DNA of 64,000 bases from Thraustochytrium sp. TN22 (Eukaryota > Sar > Bigyra > Thraustochytrida > Thraustochytriidae): NCBI GenBank assembly GCA_013306675.1, contig JABLUY010000148.1:30979-94978 (forward strand), written 5' to 3'. The translations under genes were made by a program, and so were the position numbers. The notes under the pieces were generated by a model. It was given only the letters and a program-made list of their open reading frames with translations, ran no database searches and was not told where the DNA came from. Positions 61,057-64,000 of this stretch are shown here, piece by piece. Every line of letters starts with the position of its first letter. The first letter of the stretch is position 1.

Positions 61057-61623
61057 TCAGACTACCAACGTAAGTTTATGCAACCTGTGGCTGCCGCTCA
61101 CCGAAAAAGGTTGTTCACCTGCTCTACTGGTCATCGGCAGCTTCGTCGCCGTCGTCGTGGTCGTCATTGTTATCCAAGACCTCCTCGAAGTCTGCCCGGC
61201 GCTGTCCAGGTAGTACACGAGCTTGTCGTAGATGAGCGACTGGCCGCCCGCTGTGAAGGAGACGCGTAGCACGAGCACGACGATAGCCGCGACGGCCACC
61301 GCGGCGAGCGCCACGAGCGGCGTGCCCCAGGAAGTCTTCGCGTAGGCTACCTCGGCCACGAAGCCTACGTTAAAGGGGAAGTCGCCGCGCTCCATGCGCA
61401 TGTAGGTGCCGAGAAGCGCGAGGAAGGCGAAGATGGAGCTGCCGATGTTGCCCAGCACGGACTGTACGAGGCCGAGCGCGGACTCGTTCTTGCTGAAGAA
61501 ACGCGACTGGACGGGGCGGTAGTCGTACAGCTTGACGCCAAGGTCCTCCTCTTCCTCTGTCTTGGCGCCGGTCTCCTGGAGCCACTCGGGCGCATCCGTC
61601 TCCTCCTGCCTGCCCGGCGCCAT
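61057..61623 (-). CDS. Small two-TM membrane protein, probable frame error near the C-terminus
   Basis: 188 aa from the ATG at 61623 (MAPGRQEETDAPEWLQ) as the frame stands. Not recognised. A hydrophilic N-terminus (LYDYRPVQSRFFSKNESALGL) precedes two hydrophobic segments: VLGNIGSSIFAFLALLG and TPLVALAAVAVAAIVVLVL. After YYLDSAG the frame becomes Thr/Ser-rich and unnatural (TMTTTTTATKL). The same DNA one frame over reads DFEEVLDNNDD, then an acidic stretch ending at a TAG at 61124-61126. One extra G in the GGG run (+ strand CCC at 61195-61197) would join the two. Interpretation: a sequencing indel or a recent frameshift; the true stop is then 61124. An upstream in-frame ATG near 61779 overlaps the next gene and is less likely. 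Confidence 0.65.
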   Translation of the reverse strand: MAPGRQEETDAPEWLQETGAKTEEEEDLGVKLYDYRPVQSRFFSKNESALGLVQSVLGNIGSSIFAFLALLGTYMRMERGDFPFNVGFVAEVAYAKTSWGTPLVALAAVAVAAIVVLVLRVSFTAGGQSLIYDKLVYYLDSAGQTSRRSWITMTTTTTATKLPMTSRAGEQPFSVSGSHRLHKLTLVV

Positions 61624-61738
61624 CGCGCGCCCTCGGAGCCGCGCCGTCGTGGCGACAAGGGCGAGATCTTTTGCGAGAATAACAACAAAAATGATACATG
61701 CTTCGAGCAAACGAGCGAGCGAGCGAGCTGTCCTCCCT

Positions 61739-64000
61739 CTAGGCGGGGATGCGAGCCCGGAGGTCGCGCTGTGCTTCATCAAGGCCCTTCAAGTCGAGGT
61801 AAAAGTCCTGGCCCGGCTCGGCGGGCGCGGCGTGGCCGAGGTCGATCAGCCGCACGACGAGCTTGGGACCGTCAGTGCGCACCACGAAGTTGCGCAGGGC
61901 CACGTCGCGGTGGCGCCAGCCGTGCACGTGGACCGCCATGAGCAGCTCCTCCATCGCGTTGCATACGATCTCGACGCCGCCCCGCTGGGCGGCCACCAGG
62001 TCCAGGCCGGCGCGCGTGTGCAGGCCCTCGCCCTCGTCCGTTATCGCGAAGACGCGCAGGCCGCGGCTCGTGTCTTCGCCGTCAAAGACCACGCGTGGCA
62101 GCACCGTGCCCTGCAGCTCGAGCAGCGCGTCGTAGGCCTCGCCCTCCCGGAGCAGCTCGCGCTGCGCCCGCGGCGCGTGGCGCGGAGCGAGCTTCAGGAA
62201 GCAGAGCCGCCCGGCGATCTCCATCTTCGGGTAGCCGAAGCCCTCCTGGCCCATGAGCAGCATGTACTGCCTCGCTGCGAACGCAGCGCCGAGGTCGAGC
62301 GAGAGGCGCTCCAGCGGCAGAACGGGCAGGCCGCCGCTCTCGCCGGTGGAGACGACACTGCTGTCCGTCGGGGCCGAGTCGCCGCCGTTGCAGTGCCCCC
62401 GCCCGCCGCGGGTGTCGCGACCACCGCGCACCGCGGGCGCGGGTGCGGGCGCAGACGAGCCGCCGCCGCCGCGCCTGGTGGTGCGCTTCGGGCGCTGCCG
62501 GGTGGCGTTGACCTTGGACCTTGGACGAGGTGTACCTGTCCACGTCCTCCTTCGCATCGTCGGTCTTGAGCCAATCAAAGTCGGGCTCCGCGGCGGTCGC
62601 ACTCGCGCCGAAATCATTGAGCGCGAGCAGAACGAAGGCCAGGAGCGCGTGCAGAAGCCTCATGTTGTCGGGGTTCCGCCCGCTCCGGTTGACGTTGGTG
62701 TGCTTGCTCGGGTCCGCGTAGAACGCGCGCGTGACAGAGATGGTGCGGGCCTGCGTCTCGCGCCTGATGAAGAAGAAGCGCGCGCCGTCCGTGAGGATCC
62801 CGTACTTGCGCCCCAGCGAGGACATGTACATGCACACCTGCGCCAGCGCACATTCCACGAAGAAGAGCGACGAGGCAGGGGCCTCTTCGCCCTCGCCCAG
62901 TTCGACCTCGACTTCTTGCACTTGGGCGCCCTCAGAAAGCGCATCGGCGCCCTCCGAGAGCTGGCTCGACTGGCTGCTCGACAGCCGGCTCTGCTGGCTG
63001 GACGCGGGGACAGAGGACCCCTGGGTCCTCGGAGTGCCAAGCGCACCCCCGCGCGTGGGGCTGACTTTGCCGCGCCACGAAGAGACGCGCTCCTGGACCG
63101 CCCGCAGCACATGGACGACGGCCATGCGACCTCCATCGTCGCTCTGCGTTGGCGCAGGGGTTTCGGTGCGGAAGTCGGGGGGCTTGAGGACCGTGTAGGC
63201 CGGGGAGTGCCAGGAGTCGGTCTCCTGCCGGCCCAGGGTGACCGGCTTCTTCACCTCACCGACCAGGATGGTCAGGTCGCGCGTGTAAGTCGCAGCAACT
63301 TCTTCGCGGAAGCTGCGGGCCCCTTCCGTGGTGAGTGACGCCCGTAAGTCGCCCACGATCCCCTGCGCCGCGTTGTCGCAATTCGCAAAATTGTAGCTCA
63401 GCACCACGGCCGCGTCTGCGATCCGCAGCGGTTCGCACGGCGCCACGGGCACCCTGAGCTCCGACTTGTAGACGAGCTCTTCGATTTCGACGCCGCCCTG
63501 GTTGTCTCTGTTCGGCTTCGTCATATCCTCGGGAAGCCCAAGCGCCTTGAAGACATCGGCGATGTGATGATTGATCCCCTTGTCGAGGACGTCGCAGATG
63601 ATCGAGGTCACCCGCTTCACACTGTCCGCCTCGTGAAAGGCGAAGTTGCTGCTCCTCTTGCTGCCCGAGGAGGGATTGATTGCAACGACGTTCAAGCTCG
63701 GACGGGCGTCGCCCGAGTTGCACAGTTTCTGGGAAAAGATGGGAAGGCCAAGGAGGTCGCCGGCCGCTTCCTTGAGGTTCCACTCCTTGACCTCGACGGG
63801 CTGGTAGAACCAGGGCACGTACGTGGTCCCGTGCTTGACATCCTTCTTGGAGTCCTTGGTGCTCGGCTTGCCGAAGCGCCTGTCCGCGGACCGCCTGCGA
63901 TCCTTGCCACTGACCTTGATGGTCTTGGCCGGCGAGGCATCGGACGCGCCCGCCTCGGACGCGCCCTCCCGCAACAGCGAGCTCCGCGAGATGAAGTGGT
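61739..64000 (-). CDS. Nuclease-like + protein-kinase-like gene, frameshifted and cut by the window edge
   Basis: Runs right to left; the 5' end lies beyond 64000, because the frame stays open to the edge without an ATG. The first part (to about 62527) has a PD-(D/E)XK-like core: RDLTILVGEVKKP (D...ExK), then QVCMYMSSLGRKYGILTDG and FFFIRRE. The second part (about 62512-61739), in another frame, is a protein-kinase catalytic half: FLKLAPR, a HRDVALRN catalytic loop and IDLGH in place of DFG. The frames meet at a 7-bp tandem duplication (62513-62526); with a single copy the reading frame would be continuous. Kinase-plus-REase architectures are known in fungal FunK1-like and Crinkler-type proteins of fungi and oomycetes, some acting as secreted or nuclear effectors. 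The family assignment is inference. It may be a pseudogene or an assembly error. Confidence 0.65.
62513..62526 (-). repeat. 7-bp tandem duplication at the frame break
   Basis: CTTGGAC (plus strand) occurs twice back to back, 62513-62519 and 62520-62526. On the coding strand each copy is GTCCAAG. Seven bases shift the frame by one, exactly where the nuclease-like frame ends and the kinase-like frame begins. Confidence 0.8.

What the first reader, a model, noticed from the sequence alone, without database searches (positions are those of the whole stretch)
61739..64000. Nuclease-kinase gene broken by a 7-bp duplication
A PD-(D/E)XK-like domain (GEVKK after a preceding Asp, plus a Q...Y stretch) and a HRD-type kinase lobe sit in consecutive frames that meet exactly at a 7-bp tandem duplication. 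Nuclease-kinase fusions are known from effector-like protein families in fungi and oomycetes. A fresh break suggests either a decaying member of a fast-turnover family or an assembly error. The kinase has DLG rather than DFG, so its activity is also questionable.
Basis: partly seen in the sequence, partly recalled or inferred. Interest (0 to 1): 0.75.

Follow-up and report, generated by a model that had tools for sequence, protein, structure and literature searches.

The report
Frame-split Crinkler-like nuclease-kinase gene pair
A probable marine protist carries a family of genes that join a DNA-cutting-type enzyme to a kinase, and in two sister copies the two halves fall into different reading frames at a 7-letter repeat although both halves still look protected by selection.

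Summary
In detail: a PD-(D/E)XK-like piece and a kinase piece lie in consecutive minus-strand frames near a perfect 7-bp tandem (62510-62526). It is not an isolated accident. The one close copy found in the genome (contig C427) has the same frames and tandem, with one base changed identically in both units, which argues against assembly error. An intron is not supported: six introns placed in this genome share donor and branch motifs that this segment lacks in both copies. The genome looks thraustochytrid (full-length PUFA synthase). Of 20 nuclease-piece matches, 16 have the kinase in the same open frame; four do not. DLG is normal here (16 of 22 kinases, DLE in six). Since the copies separated, kinase and nuclease end evolved under purifying selection, while residues 81-240 show 47 nonsynonymous to 1 synonymous change. 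Best reading: Crinkler-type (REase plus kinase) conflict genes in rapid turnover, with a break that is recent, re-created or spread between copies. A working split gene and a plain pseudogene pair remain rivals. The nuclease assignment rests on motifs; profile hits are weak.

The parts
62541..63998 (-). nuclease-like piece, 486 aa, open to the contig end (true start missing)
63279..63758 (-). residues 81-240 of the piece: 47 nonsynonymous to 1 synonymous difference against the C427 copy
63414..63416 (-). D195, invariant in 18 of 18 aligned rows; candidate first acidic residue of the PD-(D/E)XK motif
63246..63260 (-). GEVKK (E248, K250), candidate (D/E)XK motif; E-x-K also in 13 of the 16 other rows of A1 (the aligner did not place the pair's motif in the same columns, because of an insertion)
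62541..63038 (-). residues 321-486, conserved nuclease end with weak HSDR_N_2 similarity, under purifying selection
62510..62526 (-). 7-bp tandem GTCCAAG GTCCAAG GTC near which the two frames meet
62530..62535 (-). GTACAC, donor-like only; the six introns placed in this genome have GTA[CG]GT
62555..62557 (-). ATG in the kinase frame upstream of the tandem, present in both copies (it lies in nuclease-coding DNA, so its conservation proves nothing)
62345..62509 (-). low-complexity basic linker, as read in the kinase frame
61739..62344 (-). kinase piece: FLK lysine (62192-62194), HRD (61904-61912), DLG (from 61843); stop at 61739-61741

Best explanation
This is one of a family of at least 20 Crinkler-type genes in a probable thraustochytrid. 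The family protein has a variable N-terminal header, a PD-(D/E)XK-like nuclease domain, a flexible linker and a small kinase. The likely work of the intact protein, inferred from the literature on such genes and not shown here, is to cleave nucleic acid in a conflict (against invading DNA, or against other cells), with the kinase regulating the nuclease. The fused product was the selected form. In this copy and its sister on C427 the frame is disrupted at a 7-bp tandem. The break is young relative to the separation of the copies: it was re-created at the same place or passed between copies by gene conversion, in a family that turns over and recombines. Shown: pieces, frames, shared tandem, family, selection pattern, absence of the genome's intron signals. 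Inferred: nuclease activity, regulation by the kinase, age and route of the break.
For: Intact relatives: of 20 nuclease-piece matches, 16 carry the kinase in the same open frame and four do not: C53, C427, C421, C70. Kinase catalytic residues invariant in 22 rows. Kinase domain of the broken pair: 12 synonymous, 5 nonsynonymous, P=1.7e-4; residues 321-486: 17.5 and 11.5, P=7e-5. So both halves were constrained after the copies split, which a long-dead pair would not show. The base that differs between the copies' tandems differs in both units, easiest if it changed while one unit was present. Synonymous divergence varies strongly along some other pairs (for example 0.179 header versus 0.007 middle for C199/C70), as gene conversion would give. 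Two other members are broken elsewhere. Literature: REase coupled to kinase is about one sixth of CR C-termini (PMC5289972, passages); RiCRN3 of Rhizophagus is reported with its kinase not in frame (PMC6131194, passages).
Against: One shared ancestral duplication is fewer events than two, and then the constraint seen since would mean that the broken form works. A parallel change in both units by chance is not impossible (my rough estimate 2%). Nuclease evidence is weak: no PDB sequence match, HSDR_N_2 below its cut-off (8 of 17 members at E<=1, best 0.023), and the window piece scores better, also below cut-off, with DUF7187, a family of unknown function (E 0.002 over residues 192-227). No expression data. 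The match to the Crinkler type is by architecture only.
Confidence: 0.5

Rival explanations
1. The break is ancestral to both copies and the gene now works in two parts: the nuclease piece, and a kinase translated separately from an internal start (an ATG in the kinase frame at 62557 precedes a basic leader).
For: Shared tandem and frames in both copies; both halves under purifying selection since the split; the kinase frame has an ATG there in both copies.
Against: The ATG lies in nuclease-coding DNA, so its conservation is not informative; the nuclease frame runs on about 140 residues after the tandem without sign of constraint (offset +2 row: 6 synonymous, 17 nonsynonymous, P=0.77, counted over the whole kinase piece); 16 of 20 relatives stay fused; no transcript or protein data.
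Confidence: 0.2
2. Two dead sister pseudogenes that inherited one broken ancestor.
For: One event explains the shared tandem; broken members exist in the family (C421, C70; C417 fragment with a stop); RiCRN3 precedent.
Against: 12 synonymous to 5 nonsynonymous changes in the kinase and 17.5 to 11.5 in the nuclease end, where about 74-76% nonsynonymous would be expected without constraint; no stop in either frame of either copy in the parts seen; 46 consecutive nonsynonymous events in the part before the nuclease end.
Confidence: 0.12
3. A spliceosomal intron covers the linker, so the gene is not broken.
For: CAG|GTACAC at 62535 with AG acceptors at lengths that fit the frames (61, 175, 178, 199 nt); weak coding signal in the linker; introns exist in this genome.
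Against: Six of six introns that I placed (by eye, at GT-AG ends that join homologous exons) have donor GTA[CG]GT and a CTRAC 27-48 nt before the acceptor; segment 62300-62720 has neither motif in C53 or C427. Intact relatives show similarly weak signal in linkers read through in one frame (L041, L047, L015, L018). Six is a small sample.
Confidence: 0.05
4. Assembly or sequencing error.
For: C53 ends 1.5 kb away, inside near-identical duplicated DNA (147 of 150 bases in the last block). No reads were available.
Against: Two loci have two units, each with its own base in both units; identity around the tandem is 143 of 150, enough to tell the loci apart; a 7-bp tandem duplication is not a usual error type (recalled).
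Confidence: 0.05
5. Programmed decoding: a fraction of ribosomes (or polymerases) passes from the first unit to the second, whose codons match, so that both the short nuclease and the fusion are made.
For: Matched units in both copies despite a base change; constraint on both halves.
Against: No bypass or frameshift signal was looked for; 16 of 20 relatives need none; bypass elements are rare (recalled).
Confidence: 0.03

Closest known systems
CR (Crinkler-type) proteins with REase coupled to protein kinase, as described by Zhang et al. 2016 (seen only through passages of PMC5289972; the paper itself is not held)
   Same: nuclease-like domain with acidic/lysine motif followed by a C-terminal kinase, diverse multi-copy family, variable N-terminal header
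   Different: no Crinkler Ubl header found; host probably a thraustochytrid; nuclease profile similarity below cut-off; no delivery evidence
RiCRN3 of Rhizophagus irregularis (PMC6131194, passages)
   Same: CRN-like gene reported with a premature stop and its kinase not in frame
   Different: here the break is shared by two genomic copies, at a matched tandem, and both halves still show constraint
FunK1 / Pkinase_fungal (PF17667; that FunK1 and this model are the same family is recalled)
   Same: small divergent eukaryotic kinase in an expanded family; 9 of 22 members hit weakly
   Different: window kinase has no hit at E<=0.01; more members match APH, Pkinase and Kdo
HSDR_N_2 (PF13588), type I restriction enzyme R N terminus
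   Same: weak similarity over the conserved nuclease end in 8 of 17 members at E<=1
   Different: best E 0.023; the window member 12.6 bits against a cut-off of 25

Membership tests
Crinkler-type REase-kinase protein | nuclease-like domain and kinase in one protein | tested here: met
   for the family: 16 of 20 nuclease-piece matches have the kinase in the same open frame; the window copy itself has both in two frames
Crinkler-type REase-kinase protein | PD-(D/E)XK fold | tested here: inconclusive
   D195 in 18 of 18 rows, E-x-K in 15 of 18; HSDR_N_2 weak in 8 of 17; no PDB sequence match; structure prediction not available
Crinkler-type REase-kinase protein | Crinkler Ubl header (PF20147) | tested here: inconclusive
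   not among the Pfam families hit by 18 members at E<=0.1 (the window copy lacks its start); no match in the genome, but the control rang nowhere; headers are said to vary
Crinkler-type REase-kinase protein | delivery into another cell | not testable with these tools
   -
Protein kinase-like fold | catalytic K, E, HxD, N, D | tested here: met
   invariant columns of A2, 22 rows; APH 23.7 bits (cut-off 23.2) for the 201-aa kinase piece, but 22.0 bits, below cut-off, for the 306-aa frame
FunK1 / Pkinase_fungal | match over PF17667 cut-off | tested here: not met
   window kinase not listed at E<=0.01; 9 of 22 members, best 3.5e-4
Spliceosomal intron of this genome | GTA[CG]GT donor and CTRAC branch motif | tested here: not met
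   neither motif in 62300-62720 of C53 or the C427 equivalent; 6 of 6 introns placed have both

The most novel reading that the evidence does not exclude
The 7-bp unit number acts as a recurrent on/off switch: slippage between one and two matched units toggles each gene between a fused nuclease-kinase and an unfused nuclease, in a gene whose front part is under strong diversifying selection. This would be phase variation by tandem repeat in a free-living protist's conflict gene. The identical base change in both units fits a pass through the one-unit state.
Probability: 0.1. Interest if true: 0.8.

Novelty: new member of a known kind. Interest (0 to 1): 0.42.

Why it matters
It gives a probably free-living, probably thraustochytrid, example of Crinkler-type genes with measurable selection: the kinase and the nuclease end are conserved while the part in front changes its amino acids almost only (47 to 1), the pattern of an arms race, outside the plant-pathogen setting in which these genes are usually studied. 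The paired break gives a direct test of whether such genes are switched, split or dying.

Tried and rejected
Intron: not supported by six genome introns. Assembly error: made unlikely by the second copy. Inactive kinase because of DLG: rejected. FunK1 membership: not met. Viral or prokaryotic relatives: none by pattern scans of IMG/VR (13 pattern matches, none confirmed; 3, none confirmed) and GTDB genomes (32, none confirmed); such scans can miss distant relatives. A1 could not be scanned. Solved structures by sequence: none at E<=1 for the nuclease piece or its profile; the kinase profile matches 1026 distinct sequences, the 60 shown being ordinary kinases. PADLOC: 29 models at E<=0.01, 25 shown, mostly PD-T4-6 and MkoA, which I recall as kinase models; none for the window piece. 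NCBIfam on the nuclease cores: only weak unrelated hits. 18S identification: search did not complete. A third copy of the linker, which could give the ancestral state, was not found. Rows for the kinase frame and linker were misaligned by me (1 nt and 1 codon) and are replaced; the nuclease rows stand. The DLG/DLE count of the script (18 and 4) is wrong for two rows (L044, L047), where it caught an earlier VDLG; 16 and 6 are from the alignment. Header selection signal: the 81-240 window was chosen after looking; the run test (46 consecutive nonsynonymous events, none of 20,000 shuffles) does not depend on that choice, but only this pair shows an excess (10 other pairs do not). In residues 81-203 two other readings of the same DNA show a deficit of nonsynonymous changes (sense +1: 14 synonymous to 16 nonsynonymous, P=0.024; antisense 0: 16 to 19, P=0.0097), so an overlapping reading is not excluded; the frame used is the one that aligns with the relatives.

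Full report
What is there. On the minus strand of the window's last 2.3 kb, one open frame runs from the contig end (63998) to 62082 and a second from 62659 to 61739. At 62526-62510 stands a perfect 7-bp tandem. The upstream piece (486 aa up to 62541) holds D195 and GEVKK; the downstream piece holds FLK, HRD and DLG. The window is G000:C53:30979-94978 and the contig ends at 94978, so the start of the gene is missing. In the C427 copy the frame continues further upstream.

The sister copy. Searching the pieces apart against the whole genome (37.9 Mb, 453 contigs) gave 20 matches for the nuclease piece and 39 for the kinase piece, both lower bounds and both counting the window itself. One locus, C427:56861-59081, is far closer than the rest (84% and 98% amino-acid identity). 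Its DNA aligns over 2640 columns at 91%; the similarity continues about 360 bp past the stop and then ends. In the 9 kb of window compared with 10 kb of C427 this is the only match, so it looks like a duplicated segment rather than an allele. It has the same two frames and the same tandem. Where C53 has A in both units, C427 has G in both. No third copy of the linker was found.

The family. Of the 20 nuclease-piece matches, 16 have the kinase in the same open frame; C53, C427, C421 and C70 do not. C421 and C70 are broken at other places near the start of the kinase. The kinase alignment (22 rows) has invariant K, E, HxD, N and D; DLG in 16 rows and DLE in 6 (counted on the alignment); HRD only in the C53/C427 pair and HGD in the other 20. 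In Pfam, of the 22 members, 18 hit APH, 18 Pkinase, 17 Kdo, 13 PK_Tyr_Ser-Thr and 9 Pkinase_fungal at E<=0.01. In the nuclease alignment (18 rows) D195 is invariant and an E-x-K is present in 15 of 18 rows. HSDR_N_2 is hit weakly by 8 of 17 members at E<=1 (best 0.023; only 1 of 18 at E<=0.1, where longer frames were scanned). The window member alone hits DUF7187 (E 0.002, below cut-off). The PDB has no sequence match. The nuclease call therefore rests on motifs, order of domains and a repeated weak hit.

The host. A PfaA-type polyunsaturated fatty acid synthase covers model positions 6-2562 of 2582 in one 3044-aa frame, beside a 2083-aa frame (over the cut-off in 0 of 14 control genomes). With an intron-poor eukaryotic genome (window G+C 69%), this points to a thraustochytrid; that link is my knowledge, and no rRNA search was answered. 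The species, and whether it is free-living, are not known.

Intron test. Searches with TCP1, proteasome and actin families gave 16 matches each, most of the genes in one frame. Six introns could be placed by eye, with GT-AG ends that join homologous exons. All six have donor GTA[CG]GT, one CTRAC 27-48 nt before the acceptor, and CAG at the end; lengths 92-368 nt. Segment 62300-62720 contains no GTANGT and no CTRAC in either copy. The weak coding signal in the linker is also seen in linkers of four intact relatives (L041, L047, L015, L018; the fifth looked at, L042, keeps its signal better). I take the frame change to be real in the DNA.

Selection. Counting changes between C53 and C427: kinase domain 12 synonymous and 5 nonsynonymous (P=1.7e-4 for so few nonsynonymous); residues 321-486 17.5 and 11.5 (P=7e-5); residues 81-240 1 and 47 (P=2.9e-5 in the other direction; window chosen after looking); linker 2 and 4 (no signal). 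The longest run of nonsynonymous events in the piece is 46, reached in none of 20,000 label shuffles. The other two sense frames of the kinase DNA show no constraint; one antisense frame mirrors it (14 to 8), as third-position changes would. In residues 81-203 sense +1 and antisense 0 show a mild deficit of nonsynonymous changes (P=0.024 and 0.0097), a result against a simple reading that I cannot explain away. Ten other pairs show no excess of nonsynonymous change; some show strong variation of synonymous divergence along the gene, a sign of exchange between copies. So after the copies separated, both halves kept their amino acids while the part in front diversified.

How it most likely works. 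From the CR literature (PMC5289972, passages): REase coupled to kinase makes about one sixth of CR C-termini, and the REase is thought to be the toxic part with the kinase as regulator. I infer the same here. The matched base change in the two units is easiest if it arose while one unit was present, and the constraint on both halves fits a fused product until recently. A break that arose again at the same place, or was carried from one copy to the other by gene conversion, would explain both; a working split gene explains the constraint but not the matched change; a dead pair explains neither well. I give these 0.5, 0.2 and 0.12.

What is known. RiCRN3 of Rhizophagus irregularis is reported as a likely pseudogene with its kinase not in frame (PMC6131194, passages), so an out-of-frame kinase in this kind of gene is not new. 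My paper searches (listings, with passages of five papers) showed no account of such genes in thraustochytrids, but the main source (Zhang et al. 2016) is not held and may contain one.

Noticed in passing
window 63279-63758 versus L040: 47 nonsynonymous to 1 synonymous difference, with a run of 46 nonsynonymous events: strong diversifying selection in front of the nuclease core.
   Followed up: yes
L046 (C421), L019 (C70): Two more family members whose kinase lies in another frame than the nuclease, broken at other places.
   Followed up: partly
G000:C417:113817-114074: Kinase fragment with an in-frame TGA.
   Followed up: no
L062 (G000:C7:43100-43480): Broken, truncated-looking actin copy, apparently a pseudogene.
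   Followed up: partly
L054, L057, L055, L060, L061: Sparse introns with a CTRAC branch motif and GTA[CG]GT donor: six of six placed.
   Followed up: yes
window 63851-64000: Contig C53 ends inside DNA 147/150 identical to C427, probably an assembly break at the duplicated segment.
   Followed up: partly
L040, frame from 4400: The C427 frame has a possible start MGARSS, which resembles an N-myristoylation signal (motif recalled, not tested).
   Followed up: no
window 61380-61740: The duplicated segment includes the first part of a small frame downstream (61057-61788, no Pfam hit, with hydrophobic stretches), then similarity stops.
   Followed up: no
G000:C124: PfaA-type PUFA synthase in one 3044-aa frame next to a divergent 2083-aa frame.
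   Followed up: no
window 63390-63758: In residues 81-203 one antisense frame also shows fewer nonsynonymous changes than expected (16 synonymous to 19 nonsynonymous, P=0.0097); unexplained.
   Followed up: no
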